DNA from: Geodermatophilus sabuli
Lineage (GTDB): Bacteria; Actinomycetota; Actinomycetes; Mycobacteriales; Geodermatophilaceae
Direction of reading: 5' to 3'
Length of the DNA: 64,000 nucleotides
Assembly (NCBI RefSeq): GCF_900215145.1
Contig: NZ_OBDO01000007.1
Span: forward strand, 248,001-312,000
Shown here: one piece after another, positions 53,723-64,000 of the stretch
How the letters are laid out: each line of letters begins with the position of its first letter
Numbering within the stretch: the first letter of the stretch is position 1
Translations under genes and position numbers: made by a program
Notes under the pieces: model-generated
The model's database searches: none
Told to the model about the DNA's origin: nothing
The model's input: only the letters and a program-made list of their open reading frames with translations

Positions 53723-54733
53723 TCAGCCCCGGGCGGCGGCCGCCCGGGTGGCGTCGGCGATGGCGGCCACGCCCTGCGGCGCCCACAGGACCGAGTAGTG
53801 GTTGGTGTCGGGCACCTCGCGGGCGGTGATCCCGCTCGGCTCCAGCCCCAGCCCGGCCAGCCGGACCTCGTCGTAGAGGCCGGGGGTCTGGTCGAACAGC
53901 CCGCGGGGCGCCCACAGCAGGGTGGCCGGCACCGGCAGGTCGGTGGTGGCCTCCAGCACCCGCTCGTTGAGCAGCAGGTCGCCGCCGTCCACCCGCACGG
54001 CCTCGGGCACGCAGGTGCTCCGCAGCGCCGGCGGCTGCCCGGCTGTGCCGTCCTGCGCCATGCCTCCGTGCGCCGGGTCCTGCGCCATGCGCCCGTGCGC
54101 CGGGTCCTGCGCCATGCGCCCGTGCGCCATGTCCCTCGCGAGGTAGGCGGCCACCGCCGGGTCGTCGACCCACGGGCCGACCGCCGGGTGCCGCGCCCAG
54201 AAGGCGCGCACGGCGGCCTGGTCGGGGAACGTCATCGACAGTCGCTCCAGTGACGGGCCGAGGACGGCGGCCAGCATCGCGTCCACGTCGGCCCCGGGCG
54301 GCTGCGGGAGGGCGAGGCCGCCGTCGACCAGGACGAGCCCGTGCACCCGGTCTCGAGCGGTCCCCGCCGCGGCCATCACGGCGACGAACGCCCCCATCGA
54401 GTGGCCCACCAGGACGGCGGCGTCCGCGCCGGCCCGGCCGTCGCCCCCGAGGCGGTCCAGCAGCGTGGCGACGTCGGCGGCGTGCGCCTCGATGCCGTAC
54501 GGGCCGGGCAGGCCCGCGGAGCCCGCCCGGCCGCGCAGGTCCGGGGCGACCACCTCGAACTCCCCGGCCAGCGCGGGTGCCACGGCGGCCCACGCCATCG
54601 CGTTGGCGGTGATTCCGTGCAGGAGGACGGCGATCGGCGCGCCGGGGGCGTCGGCCGGCCAGCGCAGGGCGGCGAGCTCCCCGCCGTCGACCGGGACGCT
54701 GATCTCCTGAGGCGTGCGGGTGGCTCGGGTCAC
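53723..54733 (-). CDS. alpha/beta-fold hydrolase with an internal repeat insertion
   Basis: 336 residues: AVLLHGITANAMAW, DLRGRAGSAG, nucleophile elbow AAVLVGHSMGAFVAVM, LVLVDGGL, and the C-terminal TNHYSVLW with the catalytic His. Near residue 205 the protein carries three tandem units of nine residues based on MAQDPAHGR, encoded by a 27-bp minisatellite. The insertion lies in the lid region, so copy-number change would alter the lid without shifting frame. GTG 54733 follows GGGAG. The stop is one base from the phosphatase 2 stop. Confidence 0.85.
   Translation of the reverse strand: MTRATRTPQEISVPVDGGELAALRWPADAPGAPIAVLLHGITANAMAWAAVAPALAGEFEVVAPDLRGRAGSAGLPGPYGIEAHAADVATLLDRLGGDGRAGADAAVLVGHSMGAFVAVMAAAGTARDRVHGLVLVDGGLALPQPPGADVDAMLAAVLGPSLERLSMTFPDQAAVRAFWARHPAVGPWVDDPAVAAYLARDMAHGRMAQDPAHGRMAQDPAHGGMAQDGTAGQPPALRSTCVPEAVRVDGGDLLLNERVLEATTDLPVPATLLWAPRGLFDQTPGLYDEVRLAGLGLEPSGITAREVPDTNHYSVLWAPQGVAAIADATRAAAARG
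54054..54128. repeat. 27-bp in-frame minisatellite
   Basis: Two full 27-bp units (54054-54080, 54081-54107) and a 21-bp partial, differing at two bases between units. The unit length is a multiple of three, so repeats are tolerated in the coding frame. Confidence 0.93.
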
Positions 54734-54814
54734 GCTCCCACCCTGCCGGGACGGCCCGCGCGCCGCAGCCCGGACCGGTCGCGAGAGTGGCGTGAGGGCA
54801 GGCCGGGGCCCGAC

Positions 54815-55999
54815 TCAGTCCGGGTGGCTGAGCAGGTAGCGGCCGAAGTGCGGGACGGTGAAGGCGATCTGGCCGCGCTCGGCGGAGTAGACGAGGCCCT
54901 TCTTGATCAACGAGTCACGAGCGGGGGAGAGGGACGCCGGCTTGCGGCCCAGCGACATCGCCACCTCCGACGTCGCGACGGCGGTGCCGGCCGGCCCGCC
55001 GAGCTCGGCCATCGCGTGCATGTACTCCCGCTCGGCCGGGGTGGCCCGGTCGTAGCGGGAGCCGAAGAACCCGACCGCCAGCTCGGCCTCGGCGACCGGT
55101 GCGGCCATCGCGACGTCCGCGGCCGTGACGGGGGAGGCCGCGGCGACGTCCCAGGTGACCTTGCCGTAGGCCTGCACGAAGTACGGGTAGCCGTCGGCGG
55201 CGGCGTAGAGGGCGTCGAGGGCCCCGGACTCGAAGGTGACGTCCTCGCGCTCGGCCGGGGCGAGCAGCGCGCGGTCGGCGGCGGGCCGGTCCAGCCGGTC
55301 GATGCGCAGGTAGCGGAACAGCCGCTCCGAGTAGCTCTTGGACGCCGACAGCACCGCCGGCAGGTGCGGCAGCCCGGCGCCGAGGACGATCAGCGGGGCG
55401 CCCTGCTGGGACAGCTCGTGACAGGCGGCGCAGATCGCCGAGACGTCGTCGGCCTGGACGTCCTGCATCTCGTCGATGAACAGCGCGATGCCCCGGCCGA
55501 CGTCGGCGGCCAGCCCGGCGGCGTCGCTGAGCAGCTCGACGAGGTCGATCTCCATGTCGCCGGAGTCGGCGCGCCCGCTGGTGGCCACCACGTCGATGCC
55601 CGGCTGCCAGCGGTCGCGCACCTTCGCGTCCGGCACCTGTCGCAGCGCGAACGCCTTGAGCACGCCCAGGACGGCGTCCATCGAGTCCTGGTCAGGGTGC
55701 CGCAGCTCCCGCAGCGCCATGTGCAGCGCGGAGGAGACGGGGCGGCGCAGCGACTGGTCCGGCCGGGCCTCGATCTTGCCGGTGCCCCACCCGCGGCTGA
55801 TCGCCGCCGAGCGCAGCTGGTTGAGCAGCACCGTCTTGCCGACGCCGCGCAGCCCGGTGAGGACCAGCGAGCGTTCGGGACGGCCGTGCGCGATCCGCTC
55901 GAGGACGACGTCGAAGGCCGACAGCTCGGCGTCCCGTCCGGCCAGCTCGGGCGGGCGCTGACCGGCGCCGGGGGCGTACGGGTTCCGCACGGGGTCCAT
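54815..55999 (-). CDS. AAA-type ATPase with C-terminal winged helix (COG1672/ORC-like)
   Basis: 394 residues. Walker A LTGLRGVGKTVLLNQL near 48, Walker B GIALFIDEMQDVQ near 165, sensor-like LIVLGAGLPHLP, YLRIDRLDRPAADRAL, and a C-terminal winged-helix segment (ATPAEREYMHAMAELGG..TSEVAMSLGRKPASLSPARDSLIKKGLVYSAERGQIAFTVPHF). The layout resembles archaeal-type Orc/Cdc6-related ATPases found in actinobacteria; role unknown. ATG 55999 has no ribosome site, but TACGGT lies seven bases upstream, suggesting a leaderless transcript. A CTAG-type palindrome overlaps that promoter and another lies 100 bp further. Confidence 0.82.
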   Translation of the reverse strand: MDPVRNPYAPGAGQRPPELAGRDAELSAFDVVLERIAHGRPERSLVLTGLRGVGKTVLLNQLRSAAISRGWGTGKIEARPDQSLRRPVSSALHMALRELRHPDQDSMDAVLGVLKAFALRQVPDAKVRDRWQPGIDVVATSGRADSGDMEIDLVELLSDAAGLAADVGRGIALFIDEMQDVQADDVSAICAACHELSQQGAPLIVLGAGLPHLPAVLSASKSYSERLFRYLRIDRLDRPAADRALLAPAEREDVTFESGALDALYAAADGYPYFVQAYGKVTWDVAAASPVTAADVAMAAPVAEAELAVGFFGSRYDRATPAEREYMHAMAELGGPAGTAVATSEVAMSLGRKPASLSPARDSLIKKGLVYSAERGQIAFTVPHFGRYLLSHPD

Positions 56000-56010
56000 G
56001 TCGACCACCG

Positions 56011-56048
56011 TATGGGGCCGTCTAGTCCCGTACCTAGAGATCGGTAGA
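56011..56048. promoter_or_regulatory. four-half-site CTAG palindrome, site 1
   Basis: TATG-N6-TCTAG-N8-CTAGA-N5-GTAGA. The outer left half differs at one base from TCTG of the other sites. It overlaps the putative -10 (56007-56012) of the divergently read AAA ATPase. Confidence 0.7.
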
Positions 56049-56140
56049 AGCACGTGGAGCGTGTCGCACAGCGCGGCGAGCACCTGCCGGGCGCGCGCAG
56101 GCGGGTGCGCTGCCGTCGTGAGCGCGGGCGTCGACCGCCC

Positions 56141-56178
56141 TCTGTCGCCCTCTAGCCCCACGACTAGACGAGCGTAGA
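56141..56178. promoter_or_regulatory. four-half-site CTAG palindrome, site 2
   Basis: TCTG-N6-TCTAG-N8-CTAGA-N5-GTAGA in the interval between the AAA ATPase and the holin-like gene, 130 bp from site 1. Confidence 0.75.
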
Positions 56179-56214
56179 ACCCCCGACACGGTCCGGTCCG
56201 TGATCACCGGCCGC

Positions 56215-56220
56215 TAGCGT
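56215..56220 (+). promoter_or_regulatory. -10 box of the holin-like gene
   Basis: TAGCGT lies seven bases before GTG 56228, so transcription would start at or next to the start codon (leaderless). Inferred from spacing. Confidence 0.55.
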
Positions 56221-56227
56221 GGGCCGC

Positions 56228-56596
56228 GTGCTGAGGTTCCTGGTCAAGGTCGTTCTGATGGCCGGCGTCTTCTACGGCGTCGCCTACCTCCTGGACGGCG
56301 TCCAGGTGGTGCCGAACCCCGACGGGCCGCTGGGCGAACCCGGCACGTGGCTCTGGATCGCGCTGATCTTCGCGCTGGTCAACGCCGTCGTGGGGCCGGT
56401 CCTGCGGCTGCTCTCGCTGCCGTTCGTGCTGCTCACCCTGGGGTTGTTCCTGCTCGTCGTGAACGCCGCGCTCCTGGGCATCACCGCGGCGCTCACCGAC
56501 CGGCTGCAGGTCGACGGCATCGGCACGGCCATCCTCGGCGGGCTGCTGCTGGCGGTCGGCGCCTGGATCGTCGACCAGCTGACCGAGAAGCGCTGA
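56228..56596 (+). CDS. phage holin family (PF04020-like) membrane protein
   Basis: 122 residues with four hydrophobic segments: VLRFLVKVVLMAGVFYGVAYLL, WLWIALIFALVNAVVGPVLRLLSLPFVLLTLGLFLLVVNAALLGITAAL (two helices) and GTAILGGLLLAVGAWIVDQL. The NAVVGPVLRLLSLPFVLLTLGLF motif is typical of the PF04020 family, named for holins but common in chromosomes without prophage. GTG 56228 is preferred to GTG 56219 because TAGCGT stands seven bases ahead. Function unknown. Confidence 0.85.
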   Translation: MLRFLVKVVLMAGVFYGVAYLLDGVQVVPNPDGPLGEPGTWLWIALIFALVNAVVGPVLRLLSLPFVLLTLGLFLLVVNAALLGITAALTDRLQVDGIGTAILGGLLLAVGAWIVDQLTEKR

Positions 56597-56638
56597 CGAC
56601 TGGTCCACGCCCGTTGTGACGGCGGGCACTTCCGGGGC

Positions 56639-56644
56639 TAGCGT
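56639..56644 (+). promoter_or_regulatory. -10 box of the NAD-glutamate dehydrogenase gene
   Basis: TAGCGT, eight bases before ATG 56653, the same arrangement as at the holin-like gene; a leaderless transcript is inferred. Confidence 0.55.
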
Positions 56645-56652
56645 CAGTCGGC

Positions 56653-59600
56653 ATGGCCAGCTCCACCGGCACCATCCCGGCGATCCCGGGAACCGGCCCC
56701 CTCGACGGCGCCCCAGCCCTGGCCGCCGCCACAGACCTGGCCGCCCTCGAGGCGGCGCGCGACGAGAAGCGCCGGCTGCTGGAACGGGCCGCGCGCGCCG
56801 CCGTCGACTCCGGGACGGCGCTGCCGGCCGGCTGTGCCGCCGCCGACGTCCCGGCGCTGCTGCAGCGCTACTACTGGAGCGAGCCCGCCGCCGAGGTGCT
56901 CGACCAGGACCCGGCCGACCTCGCCGCGCTGGCGCTGGGCCACCTGGGGCTGGCCGAGGTGCGGCCGCAGGGCTCGGCCACCGTCTCCGTCCAGCGGCTG
57001 CCCGGCCGGGAGGGGCCGGCGGCGCGCTCCGTCGTCCTCGTCGTCACCGACGACATGCCGTTCCTCGTCGACTCGGTCACCGCCGAGGTGGTCCGGCAGG
57101 GGTTCCGGCTCGAGCACGTCGTCCACCCGGTGCTGGTGCTCCGCCGGGACGTGACCGGGCGGGTTCTCGCCTTCTGCGACAGCGCCGACCCCGAGCAGTG
57201 CGGCCCCGACGCGCTCGCCGAGTCCTGGATGGCCGTGGTGCTCGACGGCCCCCTGGACGACGAGGCGGCCGGTGACCTCGTCGCCGGGCTGCGCACGGTC
57301 CTCGCCGACGTCCGGGCCGTCGACGAGGACGACGGCCGCATGCGGGCCCGCGCGCTGGAGCTGGCCGGGCGGCTGGCCGAGCTGCCCCCGGCGCCCGACG
57401 GCGACCCGGCCGACGACCCCGCCGAGGCCGCGGCCCTGCTGCGCTGGCTGACCGACGACAACTTCGTCCTCCTCGGGGCGCGGGACGTCGAGCTGACCCG
57501 AACCCAGGGGCGGACGTCGGTGCGCGCGGTCCCGGGCAGCGGGCTCGGCGTGCTCCGCAGCGACACCGACATGGCCGCGACGCCCGAGACCGCACCCGGC
57601 GACGCCCTGCTCGCGGTCACCAAGGCCGACGCCCGCTCCACGGTGCACCGCCGGGCGTGGCTGGACGTCGTCACGGTCACCTTCCCCGCGGGGGACGGCA
57701 GCCCCGCCCGCCAGCACCGGCTCGTGGGGCTGTTCCCCACCACGGCGGCCGCCCACGACGTCCGGGACGTGCCGCTGGTCCGCCGCCGGGTGGCCGGGGT
57801 GATCGAGGGCTCCGGCGTGCCGGCGGACAGCCACACCGGCAAGCAGCTGCTCGACGTCCTCGAGACCTACCCCCGCGACGAGCTGTTCCAGGTCGGCACC
57901 GACCAGCTGCTGCCCGCCGCGCTGGCCGTGCTGCAGCTGCAGGAGCGCCGCCAGACCCGGCTGTTCCTGCGCCGCGACCCGGCCGGCCGGTTCTGGTCGG
58001 CGATCGTCTACCTGCCGCGCGACCGGTACACGACCGAGGTGCGGCTGGCCGTCCAGCAGCTGCTGCTCGAGCGGCTCGGCGGCACCAGCATCGAGTACAC
58101 GGCGTGGGTCACCGAGTCGGTCCTGGCGCGGTTGCACTTCGTCGTCCGCCCGCCGGTCGCCCGCAACGGCCGCACGGCGCTGCCCGACGTCGACGTCGCG
58201 TCGCTGCAGTCCGCGCTCGCCGCGGTGGCCCGCAGCTGGACCGACGACCTCTCCGACGCCCTCACCGCCCGCTACGGCGCGGACGCGGAGCGGCGGCTGG
58301 CCCGGATCGCCGACGCCTTCCCCGCCGCCTACCAGGAGGACTTCCCCGCCTCGGTCGCGGTCGAGGACGTCGAGCGGCTCGACGCCCTGGCCGCGGGCGA
58401 GATCGGCCTGGTGCTGCGCCGCCCCGCCGCGGGGACGACCGGCGAGCCGCGGCTGGCCGTGTACCGGGTGGGGGAGCGCCTGCTGCTCTCCGACGTGCTG
58501 CCGATGCTGCAGCACATGGGCGTGGACGTCGTCGACGAGCGGCCGTACGAGATCGACCGCATCGGCGCACCCCTGGCCTGGATCTACGAGTTCGGCCTCA
58601 CCGCCCCGGCCGCGGAGCTGCCCTTCCCCGGCTCGCTGCCGGAGCGCTTCACCGACGCGCTGTCGGCCGTCTGGCGGGGGGACGCCGAGGACGACGGCCT
58701 GGGCGCGCTGGTGCTGCTGGCCGGCCTGAACTGGCGGCAGGTGTCCGTCGTCCGTGCCTACGTGCAGTGGCTGCGCCAGGCGGGCCTGCCCTTCGGCCAG
58801 CGGTACGTGGAGACGACGCTGGCCGCCCACCCCGACGTCGTCGCCCGGCTGGTCGCGCTGTTCGAGACCCGCTTCTCACCCGGCCGCGACGCCGGTCGCG
58901 CCGACCGGACCGACGAGCTGGTCCGGTCGCTGCGGGAGGCGATCGGCGAGGTCGAGTCCCTCGACGCCGACCGGGTGCTCAGCTCGCTGCTGGCCGCCGT
59001 CACGGCCACCCAGCGGACCACCTACTACGTCTCCCGGGGAGCGGCCCTCGGTCCCCTGGCGCTGAAGCTGCACCCGGGCTCGGTGCCGGACCTGCCCGAG
59101 CCGCGGCCGGCCCGCGAGGTGTGGGTGAGCTCGCCGCGGGTGATGGGCGTGCACCTGCGCTTCGGCGCGGTCGCGCGGGGCGGGTTGCGCTGGTCCGACC
59201 GGCACGAGGACCTCCGCACCGAGGTGCTGGGCCTGGTGAAGGCGCAGATGGTGAAGAACACCGTCATCGTGCCCACCGGCGCCAAGGGCGGGTTCGTCGT
59301 CCGGCGGCCGCCGCCGGACAGTGCCGGCCGCGACGCCTGGCTCGCCGAGGGGCAGGCCTGCTACCGGCTGTTCATCGGCGCGCTGCTGGCGCTGACCGAC
59401 AACCTGGTGGAGGGCCGGGTCGTCCCGCCCGAGCGGGTGGTGCGCCACGACGGCGACGACACCTACCTGGTGGTCGCCGCCGACAAGGGCACCGCCACCT
59501 TCTCCGACCTGGCCAACGCCGTCGCGGTCGAGCGCGGCTTCTGGCTGGGTGACGCCTTCGCCTCCGGCGGGTCCGTCGGCTACGACCACAAGGCCATGGG

Positions 59601-61599
59601 CATCACCGCCCGCGGCGCCTGGGAGTCGGTGACCCGCCACTTCCGCGAGCTCGACCTGGACGTGCAGAGCCAGGACTTCACCGTCGTGGGCATCGGCGAC
59701 ATGTCCGGCGACGTGTTCGGCAACGGGATGCTGCTGTCGGAGCACATCCGCCTGGTGGCCGCGTTCGACCACCGGCACGTCTTCGTCGACCCCACCCCCG
59801 ACGCCGCGACGTCGTTCGCCGAGCGGCGCCGGTTGTTCGAGCTCCCGCGCTCCTCGTGGGCCGACTACGACCCGTCGCTGATCAGCCCCGGGGGCGGGGT
59901 CTGGCCGCGGACGGCGAAGTCGATCCCGGTCAGCGACCCGGTGCGGACCGCGCTCGGGCTGCCCGGGGACGTGACGTCGTTGTCGCCGGTCGAGCTGATC
60001 CGCGCGGTCCTGCTCGCGCCGGCGGACCTGCTGTTCAACGGCGGCATCGGCACCTACGTCAAGGCCTCCACCGAGAGCGCCCTGGACGCCGGCGACAAGG
60101 CCAACGACGCCGTCCGCGTCGACGGCCGGGACCTGCGGGTGCGGGTGGTGGGGGAGGGCGGCAACCTCGGCCTCACCCAGCGTGGCCGGGTCGAGTACGC
60201 CCTGACCGGCGGCCGGATCAACACCGACGCGATCGACAACTCCGCCGGCGTGGACACCTCCGACCACGAGGTCAACATCAAGATCGCTCTGGACCGGGTG
60301 GTGGAGTCCGGTGAGCTGGACGCCCCCGGCCGGGCCGCGCTCCTCGGCGAGATGACCGACGAGGTGGCCGTCGACGTCCTCACCGACAACCACGCCCAGA
60401 ACGCGACGCTGGCGACCGAGACCACCAACGCCCGCAGTCTGCTCGACGCCCACCAGCGCTACCTGCGGGCGCTGGAGCGGTCCGGTCGGCTGGTGCGCAC
60501 CGTGGAGGCGCTGCCCGACGACCGCGCCATCACCGAGCGGCGCCGCGACGGGCACGCGCTGACCGGTCCCGAGCTCTCCGTGCTGCTGGCCTACGCCAAG
60601 CTCGAGGCCGGGGACGTCGTCCTCGCCTCCGGCCTGCCCGACGACGCGGCGCTCGAGCACCTGCTGGTCGAGTACTTCCCGGCCGAGCTGCGCCGCCGCT
60701 TCCCCGAGGCGGTCACCCGGCACCCGCTGCGCCGGGAGATCGTGGCGACCGCGCTCACCAACCGGGCGGTCAACGTCGCCGGGGTCACCGGGCTGTTCCG
60801 CCTGGTCGAGGAGACGGGGGTGCCGCTGGCCGGCGTCGTGCGGGCGCACGCCGTGGCCCGCGCGGTCTTCGAGGTCGACCGGCTGTGGGACGCCGTCCGG
60901 CCGCTGGACAACCAGGTGTCGGCGACCACCCAGGTCGAGCTGCGCACCGAGGCGACCCGGCTGGCCGAGCGGGCCACCCGCTGGCTGCTCGGACTCGGCG
61001 AGCTCGCCGCGGAGGACGGCGCGCCGATCGGCGAGGTCACCGAGCGGTTCGCCGCGCCCGTGGCCGCCGTGCGCGCCGGCCTCCCGTCCTGGCTGCTGGG
61101 CGCCGAGGCCGCCGCCTACGCCGAGCGCGCCGCGCGGCTGCAGGAGGCGGGGGTGCCCGGGCGGCTGGCCGCCGAGGTGGCGGCGGCGCCACTGCTGCCG
61201 GCCGCGCTGGACCTCGCCGTCGTGGCCGAGCGCACCGGCGCGCCGATCGCCCTGGCCGGGCGGGTGCAGCAGTGCCTCGCCGAGCGGCTGGCCCTGGTGC
61301 CCCTGCGCGAGCTGGTCATCGCGCTGCCCCGCGACCGGCGCTGGCCCTCGATGGCCCGCGCCTCGCTGCGGGACGACCTGACCGGCGAGCAGGCCGCACT
61401 CACCGCCGAGGTGCTGGCCGGGCGGCGCAGCGACACCGAGTCCGCCGACGAGCTGGTGTCCCGCTGGGTGGGCGGCTGGGACGGCAGCCAGCAGCGCGCC
61501 GCGGCCCAGCTGGTCGACATCGCCTCGGGGGACCGGCAGGAGCTGGCCGAGCTGCTCGTCGCCGTCCGGACCCTGCGCGGCCTCCGCCGCCGCACCTGA
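56653..61599 (+). CDS. gdhB: NAD-dependent glutamate dehydrogenase, large (180-kDa-class) type
   Basis: 1648 residues, the normal size for the large single-subunit class described in Streptomyces, Mycobacterium and Pseudomonas. It deaminates glutamate to 2-oxoglutarate and ammonia. The N-terminal third holds ACT-like regulatory segments (SVQRLPGREGPAARSVVLVVTDDMPFLVDSVTAEVVRQG in outline). The catalytic core includes FGAVARGGLRWSDRHEDLRTEVLGLVKAQMVKNTVIVPTGAKGGF near 840-870, the Rossmann part GIGDMSGDVFGNGMLLS, and NLGLTQRGRVEYALTGGRINTDAIDN. The gene has no visible ribosome site and is probably leaderless. It stands alone and could recycle the glutamate pool used by osmolyte synthesis. Confidence 0.95.
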   Translation: MASSTGTIPAIPGTGPLDGAPALAAATDLAALEAARDEKRRLLERAARAAVDSGTALPAGCAAADVPALLQRYYWSEPAAEVLDQDPADLAALALGHLGLAEVRPQGSATVSVQRLPGREGPAARSVVLVVTDDMPFLVDSVTAEVVRQGFRLEHVVHPVLVLRRDVTGRVLAFCDSADPEQCGPDALAESWMAVVLDGPLDDEAAGDLVAGLRTVLADVRAVDEDDGRMRARALELAGRLAELPPAPDGDPADDPAEAAALLRWLTDDNFVLLGARDVELTRTQGRTSVRAVPGSGLGVLRSDTDMAATPETAPGDALLAVTKADARSTVHRRAWLDVVTVTFPAGDGSPARQHRLVGLFPTTAAAHDVRDVPLVRRRVAGVIEGSGVPADSHTGKQLLDVLETYPRDELFQVGTDQLLPAALAVLQLQERRQTRLFLRRDPAGRFWSAIVYLPRDRYTTEVRLAVQQLLLERLGGTSIEYTAWVTESVLARLHFVVRPPVARNGRTALPDVDVASLQSALAAVARSWTDDLSDALTARYGADAERRLARIADAFPAAYQEDFPASVAVEDVERLDALAAGEIGLVLRRPAAGTTGEPRLAVYRVGERLLLSDVLPMLQHMGVDVVDERPYEIDRIGAPLAWIYEFGLTAPAAELPFPGSLPERFTDALSAVWRGDAEDDGLGALVLLAGLNWRQVSVVRAYVQWLRQAGLPFGQRYVETTLAAHPDVVARLVALFETRFSPGRDAGRADRTDELVRSLREAIGEVESLDADRVLSSLLAAVTATQRTTYYVSRGAALGPLALKLHPGSVPDLPEPRPAREVWVSSPRVMGVHLRFGAVARGGLRWSDRHEDLRTEVLGLVKAQMVKNTVIVPTGAKGGFVVRRPPPDSAGRDAWLAEGQACYRLFIGALLALTDNLVEGRVVPPERVVRHDGDDTYLVVAADKGTATFSDLANAVAVERGFWLGDAFASGGSVGYDHKAMGITARGAWESVTRHFRELDLDVQSQDFTVVGIGDMSGDVFGNGMLLSEHIRLVAAFDHRHVFVDPTPDAATSFAERRRLFELPRSSWADYDPSLISPGGGVWPRTAKSIPVSDPVRTALGLPGDVTSLSPVELIRAVLLAPADLLFNGGIGTYVKASTESALDAGDKANDAVRVDGRDLRVRVVGEGGNLGLTQRGRVEYALTGGRINTDAIDNSAGVDTSDHEVNIKIALDRVVESGELDAPGRAALLGEMTDEVAVDVLTDNHAQNATLATETTNARSLLDAHQRYLRALERSGRLVRTVEALPDDRAITERRRDGHALTGPELSVLLAYAKLEAGDVVLASGLPDDAALEHLLVEYFPAELRRRFPEAVTRHPLRREIVATALTNRAVNVAGVTGLFRLVEETGVPLAGVVRAHAVARAVFEVDRLWDAVRPLDNQVSATTQVELRTEATRLAERATRWLLGLGELAAEDGAPIGEVTERFAAPVAAVRAGLPSWLLGAEAAAYAERAARLQEAGVPGRLAAEVAAAPLLPAALDLAVVAERTGAPIALAGRVQQCLAERLALVPLRELVIALPRDRRWPSMARASLRDDLTGEQAALTAEVLAGRRSDTESADELVSRWVGGWDGSQQRAAAQLVDIASGDRQELAELLVAVRTLRGLRRRT

Positions 61600-61617
61600 C
61601 CCCCGCTCGGTGGTGGC

Positions 61618-61680
61618 GGCACGATCAGCTTGGCTGATCGTGCCGCGTCCTGGCTCACCGCCGACGACGAGCCAGGACGC
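61618..61680. repeat. terminator hairpin plus dispersed hairpin element, copy 2
   Basis: GGCACGATCAGC-TTG-GCTGATCGTGCC (61618-61644) is a perfect 12-bp stem just after the dehydrogenase. It is followed by GCGTCCTGGCTC, a 12-base loop and GAGCCAGGACGC (61645-61680). Both the second stem and the GGCTGATCGTGC tag recur at 45190-45251. Confidence 0.9.
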
Positions 61681-61711
61681 TCGACGGTGAGCCAGGCTGA
61701 TCATGGCACCG

Positions 61712-61747
61712 TCTGTGGTCGTCTAGGGTCAGCGCTAGAGAGGTAGA
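61712..61747. promoter_or_regulatory. four-half-site CTAG palindrome, site 3
   Basis: TCTG-N6-TCTAG-N8-CTAGA-N3-GTAGA, 133 bp before zwf. The last spacer is two bases shorter than in the other sites. TAGGGT inside it could serve as a -10 for zwf. Confidence 0.7.
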
Positions 61748-61879
61748 GACGACGGCAGAGGGTTCGGGGGCACGGCGCATGGGCAGGGGGCGAGGACCCG
61801 GCCCCGAGCGGGAGGACCCGACCGTGCCCCGACGACCGCCGATCGGCACCGACGGCCACCGGCCCGTCGAGGACCACGG

Positions 61880-63286
61880 ATGAGCAGGACCCTCGTCGTG
61901 CTCGGCGGGTCGGGGGACCTCACCGGCCGGCTGCTGCTGCCCGGGCTCGCCGAGCTGGAGGACACCGGCGTGCTCGGCGACGAGATGGTCGTCGCCGTCA
62001 GCCGGCTGGACTGGTCCGACGAGGAGTACCGCGACTGGGCCCGCGACCGGCTGGCCGAGCACGCCGCGCACGTGCCCGCACCGGCGCGGGACCGGCTGGT
62101 CGCCCGGCTCGGCTACGAGCGTGGGGACGTGACCCTCGCCGCCGACCTGCGCCGCGCGCTCGACCGGGCCGGGGAGGCGCCGGTGGTCTACCTCGCGTTG
62201 CCCAACACGGTGTTCCTGCCGACGCTCGAGGCGATGGAGCAGGCGGGGCTGCCCGACGGCGCGGTGGTCGCCGTCGAGAAGCCGTTCGGCCGCAACCGCG
62301 CCGACGCCGAGCAGCTCAACGCCGTCCTGCACCGGCTGGTGCCGGAGGAGCGGGTGTTCCGCACGGACCACTTCCTGGCGATGCAGACGGTGCTCAACAT
62401 CCTCGGCCTGCGCTTCGCCAACCGGGTGTTCGAGCCGGTGTGGAACGGCCAGCACGTCGAGCGGGTCGACATCGTCTTCGACGAGACCCTCGCGCTGGAG
62501 GGCCGGGCCGGTTACTACGACACCGCGGGCGCGCTGCGCGACATGCTGCAGAACCACCTGCTGCAGATGCTGGCCGTCGTGGCCATGGAGCCGCCGACCG
62601 CGATCGACGCGGCCGGCCTGTCCGCCCGCAAGGCCGACGTCCTGCGCGCCGTCCGGCCTCCGGCCGACATGGCCCGCGACACGGTGCGGGCCCGGTACAC
62701 CGCCGGGACGGTCGAGGGCCGGGAGCTGCCCGACTACGTCGCCGAGGAGGGGGTCGAGCCCGACCGCGGCACCGAGACCTACGCGGAGTACACGGTCACC
62801 GTGCACAACTGGCGGTGGGCCGGCGTGCCGTTCCGGCTGCGCTCGGGCAAGGCGCTGGGGCACGACCGGCACGAGATCGTGCTGCGGTTCCGGCCCGTGC
62901 CGCACCTCGCCTTCGGTGGTCCGGACGCTGCGTCGCCCGATCCGGAGCCGGACCTGCTGCGGCTGCTCCTGGACCCCGACCGCATCTCCCTGGAGCTCAA
63001 CCTCAACGGCGCCGGCGACCCCTTCGACCTGGAGCGCCGGTCCCTGGACATCGAGCTGCCCCCGCCGAGGCTGTCGGCGTACGGGCTGCTGCTCGAGGAG
63101 CTGCTCTCCGGCAGCGCGGCGTTGTCCATCAGCGACGTGGAGGCCGAGCAGTCGTGGCGCATCGTCGAGCCCATCCTCGCCGCCTGGGACGCGGGCGAGG
63201 TGCCGTTGCTGGAGTACCCGGCCGGATCGGAGGGGCCGTCCCCGGTTGACCGCCGCGCCGTGCCCGCGTGTCCCGCCTCGCGGTGA
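61880..63286 (+). CDS. zwf: divergent glucose-6-phosphate dehydrogenase homologue
   Basis: 468 residues with the G6PD fold: nucleotide loop VVLGGSGDLTGRLLLPGL, VVYLALPNTVF, VAVEKPFGRNRADAEQLN, and GYYDTAGALRDMLQNHLLQML, in which the catalytic-type His226 is kept. The substrate motif normally reading RIDHYLGKE is RTDHFLAMQ (161-169): the general-base-region Asp-His stays, but the phosphate-binding Lys becomes Met168. It may therefore have low or altered activity, or act on another sugar. ATG 61880 follows CGAGG. No opcA, tal or pgl is adjacent, unlike typical actinobacterial zwf. Confidence 0.85.
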   Translation: MSRTLVVLGGSGDLTGRLLLPGLAELEDTGVLGDEMVVAVSRLDWSDEEYRDWARDRLAEHAAHVPAPARDRLVARLGYERGDVTLAADLRRALDRAGEAPVVYLALPNTVFLPTLEAMEQAGLPDGAVVAVEKPFGRNRADAEQLNAVLHRLVPEERVFRTDHFLAMQTVLNILGLRFANRVFEPVWNGQHVERVDIVFDETLALEGRAGYYDTAGALRDMLQNHLLQMLAVVAMEPPTAIDAAGLSARKADVLRAVRPPADMARDTVRARYTAGTVEGRELPDYVAEEGVEPDRGTETYAEYTVTVHNWRWAGVPFRLRSGKALGHDRHEIVLRFRPVPHLAFGGPDAASPDPEPDLLRLLLDPDRISLELNLNGAGDPFDLERRSLDIELPPPRLSAYGLLLEELLSGSAALSISDVEAEQSWRIVEPILAAWDAGEVPLLEYPAGSEGPSPVDRRAVPACPASR

Positions 63287-63304
63287 GGACGGCCTCGAGG
63301 AGCG

Positions 63305-63342
63305 TCTGCCCGCGTCTAGCGTGTGCGCGAGAGAGCGGTAGA
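63305..63342. promoter_or_regulatory. four-half-site CTAG palindrome, site 4
   Basis: TCTG-N6-TCTAG-N8-CGAGA-N5-GTAGA (one mismatch in the third half). It lies between the converging ends of zwf and the amidase gene, where no promoter for a visible gene is expected. Confidence 0.65.
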
Positions 63343-63347
63343 CGACG

Positions 63348-64000
63348 TCAGAGGGCGGGGTGCCGCCGGCCGAAGAGGGTCGCCTGCTCGAAGGCGTGAC
63401 CCACTTCGAGCACCCGGCGGTCGGCCCGCGGTGAGGCGATGACCTGCAAACCGATCGGCAGCCCGTCCGGGGTGAAACCGCCCGGCACCGACAGCGCCGG
63501 GCAGCCGGTGGGCGTGATGAGCGTGCAGGCGCGCATCCACTCCAGGTAGTCGTCCAGCTTCACACCGTTTATCTCCGTGGGGTACTCCTGCTCGACCGGG
63601 AAGGGCAGCACCTGCGTCGTCGGCGCGAGCAGGACGTCGTAGCGGTCGAAGAAGGCGACCACCCGCTCGTAGAGGGCGGTGTGCACCATCTCCGCCCGCG
63701 CGACGTCGGAGCCCGACAGCTTCGCGCCCCTCTCCGCGTTCCAGCGGATCGACTCCTTCACCTGGTCCGGGTGCTGCCGGGCCAGGTCGGAGAAGGAGGC
63801 GTCGAACAGCCAGGCGCGCAGCGTGCCGAAGACGTCGTCGGCGCCGGAGAGGTCGGGGCAGTCCGCCTCCACCGTGGCGCCGAGCTCCTCGAAGACCCGG
63901 ACGGAGTCGGCCAGCACCGCGGTGACCGCCGGGTCGACGGTGATCCGGCCACCGAGGTCGGGCGCCCAGGCCACCCGCAGGCCGTCCAGCCGCTCGGGCA
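63348..64000 (-). CDS. amidase (amidase signature family), truncated by the window edge
   Basis: C-terminal 217 residues; the frame continues past base 64000, so the Lys-Ser-Ser catalytic region is not in view. Visible family features are RLDGLRVAWAPDLGG, VFEELGATVEADCPDL, FDRYDVLLAPTTQVLPFPVE, and the typical closing ITPTGCPALSVPGGFTPDGLPIGLQVIASPRADRRVLEVGHAFEQ. These enzymes hydrolyse amides or the misacylated glutamine of tRNA (GatA); the tail here fits general amidases rather than GatA, with no gatB or gatC beside it. Confidence 0.88.
   Translation of the reverse strand, partial: PERLDGLRVAWAPDLGGRITVDPAVTAVLADSVRVFEELGATVEADCPDLSGADDVFGTLRAWLFDASFSDLARQHPDQVKESIRWNAERGAKLSGSDVARAEMVHTALYERVVAFFDRYDVLLAPTTQVLPFPVEQEYPTEINGVKLDDYLEWMRACTLITPTGCPALSVPGGFTPDGLPIGLQVIASPRADRRVLEVGHAFEQATLFGRRHPAL

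What the first reader, a model, noticed from the sequence alone, without database searches (positions are those of the whole stretch)
56011..63342. Undescribed four-half-site CTAG palindrome repeated four times
TCTG-N6-TCTAG-N8-CTAGA-N5-GTAGA occurs at 56011 (one mismatch), 56141, 61712 (last spacer N3) and 63305 (one mismatch). CTAG is otherwise rare here: outside these sites I found it only at a few stop codons, -10 boxes and one codon. The half-sites are spaced 10-11 bp apart on each arm, which fits two dimers binding one DNA face. One copy sits over the AAA ATPase promoter, one in its upstream interval, one before zwf and one between converging gene ends, so not all can be ordinary operators. 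I know of no named regulator with this pattern. An architectural or replication-related site, perhaps linked to the neighbouring winged-helix ATPase, is speculation. TAGNGT inside some copies also resembles a -10.
Basis: partly seen in the sequence, partly recalled or inferred. Interest (0 to 1): 0.78.

Follow-up and report, generated by a model that had tools for sequence, protein, structure and literature searches.

The report
Self-operator of an uncharacterised AAA+ ATPase
Four copies of a four-part DNA palindrome sit around the gene of an uncharacterised, highly conserved ATPase with a predicted DNA-binding domain; the pairing recurs across Actinomycetes and many distant relatives of the ATPase carry palindromes of the same layout on their own promoters, so the palindrome is very probably the ATPase's own binding site.

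Summary
The pattern is real: four copies in the window, the only four in the 5.5 Mb genome at up to 3 mismatches, present in 108 of 112 genomes of the family. It follows the AAA+ ATPase gene at 54815-55999 (predicted C-terminal winged helix), not zwf or glutamate dehydrogenase. Among 134 distinct orthologue promoters from Actinomycetes, 128 carry it by matrix, 108 by matrix-free pattern. Outside the window's family, 101 of 131 genomes with a strong orthologue have the site, against 2 of 116 without. Paralogues (35-47% identity) on plasmids and chromosomes of Actinobacteria and Proteobacteria carry palindromes of the same layout, often with other half-site letters, before their own start codons: 15 of 25, then 4 of 8 in a later set, against 35 of 1040 control promoters. 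Best reading: the operator of an uncharacterised AAA+ regulator family, with autorepression at site A and control of neighbours at site B (both inferred). The gene lies within 258 kb of dnaA in 36 of 36 near-closed genomes, so an origin-proximal structural role stays open. No binding was measured.

The parts
56011..56048 (.). Site A: four-half-site palindrome over the core promoter of the AAA+ gene
   Evidence: centre 27-28 bp before the AAA start in 19 of 20 family loci
56141..56178 (.).
   Evidence: centre 57-60 bp before the aligned start of the holin-like gene in 17 of 20 family loci
61712..61749 (.). Site C: palindrome between the GDH stop and zwf
   Evidence: a site within 260 bp after the GDH stop in 11 of 20 loci
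63305..63342 (.). Site D: palindrome between the converging ends of zwf and the amidase gene
   Evidence: centre 27-28 bp beyond the amidase stop in 15 of the 15 loci (of 20) where the amidase was found
54815..55999 (-). AAA+ ATPase (AAA_16, PF13191) with predicted C-terminal winged helix, 394 aa; proposed binder of the palindrome
   Evidence: Pfam 82.2 bits; AlphaFold2 model pLDDT 80; Foldseek
56007..56012 (-). Likely -10 hexamer TACGGT of the AAA gene; mRNA probably leaderless
   Evidence: Read from sequence; TANNNT at -14 to -12 in 132 of 134 distinct orthologue promoters
56061..56065 (-). GACAC box upstream of site A
   Evidence: GACAC within 110 bp in 104 of 134 distinct orthologue promoters, 16 expected from shuffles; GACAC is the WhiA motif in Streptomyces venezuelae (PMC3781837)
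56215..56220 (+). Likely -10 hexamer TAGCGT of the holin-like gene; site B centre lies about 68 bp before a possible leaderless start at 56228
   Evidence: Read from sequence; inference
56228..56596 (+). Small membrane protein, Phage_holin_4_2 family (the ORF list starts it at 56219)
   Evidence: PF04020, 89.2 bits (from 56219)
56653..61599 (+). NAD-dependent glutamate dehydrogenase (large type)
   Evidence: PF05088, 828 bits
61880..63286 (+). Glucose-6-phosphate dehydrogenase (zwf-type)
   Evidence: NF009492, 565 bits over a cut-off of 428
63348..63974 (-). Amidase, 3' part (208 aa; matches the profile's C-terminal half)
   Evidence: PF01425, profile positions 247-445 of 445

Best explanation
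The palindrome is the binding site (operator) of the AAA+ ATPase encoded beside it. The ATPase belongs to a family, without a described function that I could find, in which many members carry a four-half-site operator on their own promoter. Two inverted arms each hold two half-sites one helical turn (10 bp) apart, so that four winged helices, as two pairs, can sit on one face of the DNA. At site A the bound protein covers the -35 region and touches the -10 of its own, probably leaderless, promoter: autorepression (inferred). Site B keeps a fixed distance to the holin-like/GDH genes, about 68 bp before a possible leaderless start, a position that suits activation or looping with site A (inferred). 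The nucleotide state of the AAA+ domain would switch between free, bound and bridged forms (inferred). Shown: the sites, their conservation, their coupling to this gene, the same geometry with partly different letters in paralogues, and a predicted AAA+ plus winged-helix fold. Not shown: binding, repression, signal.
For: 1) All 4 genome-wide copies lie within 7.4 kb beside the AAA gene. In 36 near-closed genomes, 61 sites at two or fewer mismatches were found in 32 genomes, 58 of them within 30 kb of the AAA gene. 2) Co-occurrence outside the own family: 101 of 131 genomes with a strong orthologue (E <= 1e-100), 2 of 116 without (Fisher p 1e-38, not corrected for relatedness). 3) Sites stay with the AAA gene when neighbours change; GDH and zwf were found in the fetched flanks only in the own family. 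4) Of 134 distinct orthologue promoters, 128 hold a matrix-defined site and 108 a match to the relaxed pattern at 3 or fewer mismatches. 5) Paralogues: 15 of 25 promoters score 15 or more for the four-half-site layout at offset 10 (0.22 expected from shuffles); offsets 6-9 and 11-15 give 0-3. Distinct control promoters: 35 of 1040 at offset 10, and no preference for 10 (59 at offset 9, 40 at 11). Later set: 4 of 8 at offset 10, 0 of 8 at nine other offsets, 0.09 expected. 6) Predicted recognition helix 355-367 and wing 368-384 have mean column identity 0.90 and 0.89 against 0.82 for the AAA domain. 7) Fold: AAA+ plus winged helix, matches include Orc1 bound to DNA.
Against: No binding or expression data. 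Six of 134 distinct orthologue promoters lack a matrix-defined site, and 30 of 131 orthologue-bearing genomes have none at the stringency. Ten of 25 paralogues and 4 of 8 in the later set do not reach the score. Some scoring paralogues keep TCTA-like letters with a wider centre (L264, L297, L298), so co-divergence of letters is partial. The winged-helix region as a whole (0.81) is no better conserved than the AAA domain, and helix 344-350 is worse (0.61). In the own family one site lies between converging gene ends. Foldseek TM-scores are 0.25-0.50 with large rmsd, a match at the level of architecture. A co-inherited regulator encoded elsewhere is not excluded by co-occurrence alone, though the paralogue result speaks against it.
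Confidence: 0.78

Rival explanations
1. The sites are structural: the ATPase binds and bridges them to organise or mark an origin-proximal chromosome region (a centromere-like or replication-control element), and promoter control is secondary.
For: The gene lies 36-258 kb from dnaA (at most 4.0% of the genome, median 2.0%) in 36 of 36 near-closed genomes of 17 genera. Two to five matrix-defined sites in 123 of 140 loci (six of the 140 are second copies of the same genome). One site at converging gene ends, at a fixed distance from the amidase stop. Orc1/Cdc6-like architecture.
Against: Position near the origin can be simple inheritance of gene order; no control gene was mapped. Two of the sites keep fixed distances to gene starts. 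Paralogues on plasmids keep the operator layout. Many genomes of the order lack both gene and sites.
Confidence: 0.17
2. Another conserved regulator, for instance WhiA or a WhiB-like protein, binds the palindrome or the neighbouring GACAC box, and the ATPase is merely a target gene.
For: GACAC in 104 of 134 distinct orthologue promoters (16 expected); in many Rhodococcus and Nocardia promoters it lies in the spacer of the palindrome. GACAC is the WhiA motif (PMC3781837, passages).
Against: The palindrome is nearly confined to the neighbourhood of one gene and absent where the gene is absent, and paralogue promoters have the same geometry with partly different letters. GACAC is a separate box in most lineages.
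Confidence: 0.07
3. The palindrome works as RNA (hairpin, terminator or RNA switch).
For: Some copies have long complementary arms (for example in G008), and two of the four window copies lie after gene 3' ends.
Against: Site A lies upstream of the likely transcription start. Letters of the half-sites are conserved while the spacers vary. No Rfam match at gathering scores in 54700-63500.
Confidence: 0.02
4. Chance or a mobile repeat (transposon end, REP-like element).
For: Several copies close together.
Against: Expected 0.01 copies; fixed positions relative to genes in relatives; no further copies in the genome.
Confidence: 0.01

Closest known systems
Orc1/Cdc6 initiators and their origin recognition boxes (archaea)
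   Same: AAA+ domain followed by a winged helix; Orc1-DNA structures 2v1u and 2qby among the Foldseek matches; sites near the gene
   Different: Far below the NCBIfam family cut-off (17.6 against 181.3 bits); the host has DnaA elsewhere; a four-half-site palindrome, unlike the archaeal boxes (recalled)
SSO1545/PABY2304-type archaeal ATPases (2fna, 2qen)
   Same: 2fna is the best Foldseek match; AAA+ plus winged helix
   Different: 12-13% identity; no Pfam ATPase_2 match reported at E <= 0.001; no described DNA sites known to me
MalT-type STAND activators with arrays of MalT boxes (recalled)
   Same: ATPase-coupled DNA binding on repeated short boxes; the fold list also holds 8bob, a maltose-system structure
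   Different: MalT is a large protein with a LuxR-type domain (recalled); here 394 aa with a winged helix and a closed tetrad of half-sites
ParB-parS centromeres (recalled)
   Same: Few palindromic sites in an origin-proximal region
   Different: Another protein fold, and parS is a different and shorter (16-bp) palindrome (recalled)

Membership tests
AAA_16 (PF13191) | Profile score over the curated cut-off | tested here: met
   82.2 bits against 32.6
Orc1/Cdc6 initiators (TIGR02928) | Family profile over its cut-off | tested here: not met
   17.6 bits against 181.3, E 0.0014
Orc1/Cdc6 initiators (TIGR02928) | AAA+ domain plus C-terminal winged helix | tested here: met
   Predicted model, mean pLDDT 80; Foldseek E 1.2e-6 to 2v1u, TM 0.43-0.44
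Orc1/Cdc6 initiators (TIGR02928) | Replication starts at the bound site | not testable with these tools
   Needs marker-frequency or initiation-site mapping
SSO1545-type archaeal ATPase (ATPase_2) | Pfam match | tested here: not met
   Not among the four families at E <= 0.001
WhiA/WhiB regulon | GACAC motif in the promoter | tested here: met
   104 of 134 distinct orthologue promoters, 16 expected; this concerns the AAA promoter, not the palindrome
WhiA/WhiB regulon | Expression depends on WhiA | not testable with these tools
   No expression data
Anti-phage defence ATPase (PADLOC) | Convincing profile match | tested here: not met
   Only mad8 at E 0.0021, 15.7 bits
ParB-parS | ParB-family protein beside the sites | tested here: not met
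   The five neighbouring proteins scanned match AAA_16, Phage_holin_4_2, GDH, G6PD and Amidase families
Autoregulated regulator with cognate operator | Conserved operator on own promoter, geometry kept in paralogues | tested here: met
Autoregulated regulator with cognate operator | Protein binds operator | not testable with these tools
   Needs gel shift or footprint

The most novel reading that the evidence does not exclude
A widespread, uncharacterised family of Orc1/Cdc6-like AAA+ proteins assembles in an ATP-controlled way on self-encoded four-half-site palindromes. In Actinomycetes the orthologue and its few sites form a third conserved origin-proximal nucleoprotein element beside oriC and parS, bridging sites at promoters and at converging gene ends.
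Probability: 0.2. Interest if true: 0.9.

Novelty: new variant of a known kind. Interest (0 to 1): 0.76.

Why it matters
It gives a first molecular handle (a DNA target, a regulatory circuit and a stoichiometry hint) to a protein that is about 67-81% identical between families of Actinomycetes, while its relatives in plasmid records are annotated only as 'ATP-binding protein' or 'AAA family ATPase'. It suggests a rule that can be tried on every paralogue, plasmid-borne ones included: read the half-site from the gene's own promoter. It also makes the origin-proximal question testable with one protein and one short DNA.

Tried and rejected
Rejected: chance, mobile repeat, RNA element, linkage to zwf or GDH as such (not found in the fetched flanks of other families), a phage or plasmid origin of the chromosomal locus (the phage collection gave one unannotated 5.9-kb contig with a 70% orthologue and a site, probably bacterial DNA; the two plasmid records with 73-78% identity are 2.7 and 11.9 Mb replicons), a defence system.

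Led nowhere: conserved neighbours of the AAA gene across families (the AAA frame and frames overlapping it recur in up to 33 of 33 loci, other neighbours in at most 9); secondary copies of the paralogues' operators in five larger paralogue loci (no convincing copy beyond the promoter one).

Limits of the tests. The self-similarity score recognises only 12 of 140 orthologue promoters at 15 or more, because outer half-sites vary there. It was devised after seeing one plasmid paralogue, so searches are exploratory and one search is the test on new genes. The start codons used there were aligned ones, for three of the eight later genes not the annotated ones. The matrix was trained on the loci that it then scanned, and the pattern count, do not depend on it. 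The control promoters are from mostly GC-rich chromosomes, while several plasmid paralogues are less so; the shuffles are matched in dinucleotide content.

Mended after a check: six of the 140 loci are second copies of the same genome region, so promoter counts are now given for 134 distinct promoters, site contexts for 360 distinct sites and controls for 1040 distinct promoters. In one search several genome lengths are rounded, which matters for G193 and G279 (about 36 and 70 kb). One of the 36 genomes has two contigs. The counts were typed by hand. Genomes are related, so Fisher's p overstates independence.

Papers: of PMC3781837 I saw passages, including one from the abstract; all others only as search listings. 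That nothing is in print rests on these searches alone, in an open-licence library.
Full report
OBSERVATION. With up to three mismatches it hits the four stated places and nothing else in the window (0.01 expected), and nothing else in the whole genome of 5.5 Mb (the reversed control pattern gave none). Seven of the window's 13 CTAGs lie in these sites. A core-only search (TCTAG-N8-CTAGA, one mismatch) adds one isolated match near the end of another contig. The window is from the family Geodermatophilaceae: its AAA+ protein is 92-95% identical to those of the Geodermatophilus species listed.

CONSERVATION IN THE FAMILY. 108 of 112 genomes of the family, from all 12 genera sampled, have at least one match; the reversed control gives 0-2 per genome and strand. 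Of the four without a match, three are incomplete genomes of one genus. In 20 family loci read in full, the own one included, a site A has its centre 27-28 bp before the AAA+ start in 19; a site B has its centre 57-60 bp before the aligned start of the holin-like gene in 17; a site lies within 260 bp after GDH in 11; and a site lies 27-28 bp beyond the amidase stop in 15 of the 15 loci in which the amidase was found. Where about 6 kb separate the AAA+ gene from the holin-like gene (L044), each site stays with its own gene. Over all fetched loci there are 360 distinct matrix-defined sites: 2 inside called genes (about 17% of the sequence is intergenic), 119 between diverging genes, 178 between tandem genes, 53 between converging ends, 8 at locus edges. 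Gene calls are my own and approximate.

CONSERVATION BEYOND THE FAMILY. The AAA+ protein has orthologues with about 67-81% identity in many families of the order and class. GDH and zwf were not found in the fetched flanks there, but the palindrome was, on the AAA+ promoter: Nocardia, Rhodococcus, Jiangella, Actinoplanes, Lentzea, Microbispora and others. Outside the own family, 101 of 131 genomes with a strong orthologue have a site at two or fewer mismatches; of 116 genomes without one, 2 do. In the own family 50 of 51 do. In 36 near-closed genomes, 61 such sites were found in 32 genomes, 58 of them within 30 kb of the gene. Two of the three exceptions are in genomes of one genus, about 8.5 kb from dnaA; in one of them the gene that follows is gyrA; the other was placed by position only.

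PROMOTER ANATOMY. Of 134 distinct orthologue promoters, 128 hold a matrix-defined site, and 108 hold a match to the relaxed pattern at three or fewer mismatches, which does not depend on the matrix. In the 91 promoters outside the own-family loci the matrix count is 86. A TANNNT hexamer starts 12-14 bp before the start codon in 132 of 134, as expected of leaderless mRNAs. The palindrome centre lies 29-31 bp before the start in 95 of 134, so it covers the -35 region and reaches the -10; in Rhodococcus and Nocardia it lies about 20 bp further upstream. A GACAC box is present in 104 of 134 (16 expected); in many Rhodococcus and Nocardia promoters it lies in the spacer of the palindrome. GACAC is the WhiA motif in Streptomyces venezuelae (PMC3781837).

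WHO BINDS. The protein is AAA_16. The AlphaFold2 model (mean pLDDT 80, pTM 0.75) shows an AAA+ domain and a C-terminal winged helix. Foldseek's best matches are an archaeal AAA+ ATPase, Orc1 with DNA and RuvB, all at the level of architecture (TM 0.25-0.50). The predicted recognition helix and wing have mean column identities of 0.90 and 0.89, against 0.82 for the AAA domain; the winged-helix region as a whole has 0.81. The strongest evidence is from paralogues. Relatives with 35-47% identity to the window protein occur on plasmids and chromosomes of Actinobacteria and Proteobacteria. The matrix finds no site in the seven paralogue loci scanned (best scores 1.2 or less), but many paralogues have a palindrome of the same layout just before their own start codon, for example CTGT-type in Cellulosimicrobium, TATA-type in Pandoraea and TTATGG-type in Rhodococcus opacus; others keep TCTA-like letters with a wider centre (L264, L297, L298). 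I scored promoters for inverted arms with half-sites repeated at a fixed offset. At offset 10, 15 of 25 score at least 15 of 18 (0.22 expected from shuffles); offsets 6-9 and 11-15 give 0-3. Of 1040 distinct control promoters 35 reach this at offset 10, 59 at 9 and 40 at 11, so the preference for 10 is special to the paralogues. Eight further paralogues, fetched after the score was fixed: 4 of 8 at offset 10, 0 of 8 at each of nine other offsets, 0.09 expected. The geometry stays while the letters partly diverge, as expected if the family members themselves bind these sites.

MECHANISM. Shown: sites, geometry, coupling, paralogue operators, predicted fold. Inferred: two pairs of subunits, each pair spanning one helical turn, bind head to head; autorepression at site A by covering the core promoter; control of the holin-like/GDH genes from site B; possible bridging between sites, which would account for site D between converging ends. 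The signal may be the nucleotide state of the AAA+ domain.

ORIGIN PROXIMITY. In 36 of 36 near-closed genomes the gene is 36-258 kb from dnaA (median 101 kb; at most 4.0% of the genome). This is striking but not decisive: gene order near the origin may simply be inherited, no control genes were mapped, and the genomes are related. A structural or replication role is therefore kept as a rival (0.17) and as the novel case.

KNOWN OR NEW. Searches of an open-licence library listed no paper that describes this site or this protein family as a regulator (for the archaeal relatives). DNA-binding ATPases that regulate genes exist as a kind (recalled), so I file this as a new variant: a compact AAA+ winged-helix regulator family with a four-half-site self-operator.

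Noticed in passing
L251:8736-8773 and L252:13782-13819: In two genomes of one genus (unnamed, family f41) a palindrome of the same type lies about 8.5 kb from dnaA, in L251 directly before gyrA, 114-121 kb away from the AAA+ gene.
   Followed up: partly
window 56185-56189 and 56061-56065: GACAC boxes (the WhiA motif of Streptomyces) lie next to both site A and site B; in many Rhodococcus and Nocardia promoters GACAC lies in the centre of the palindrome.
   Followed up: partly
window 61615-61710: Nested inverted repeats between GDH and zwf (14-bp perfect arms, 16-bp arms at 94%, 42-bp outer arms at 79%), directly before site C; function not examined.
   Followed up: no
window 54050-54128: Near-perfect 27-bp tandem repeat, 2.9 copies, inside the frame 53723-54733 on the - strand; makes a repeated peptide.
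   Followed up: no
L260:1068-2321: An unannotated 5.9-kb record filed as bacteriophage (MT837995.1) carries a 70% orthologue of the AAA+ protein and the site; probably bacterial DNA.
   Followed up: partly
L253:11498-11535: In one large genome of family f15 (unnamed, G347) a good site lies 27 kb from the AAA+ gene; its gene context was not read.
   Followed up: no
plasmid loci L257-L259, L261, L291-L314: Paralogues of the AAA+ protein occur on plasmids of Rhodococcus, Arthrobacter, Sphingobium and others (94 of 72,556 plasmid records), with no constant partner gene in the annotation tables shown.
   Followed up: partly
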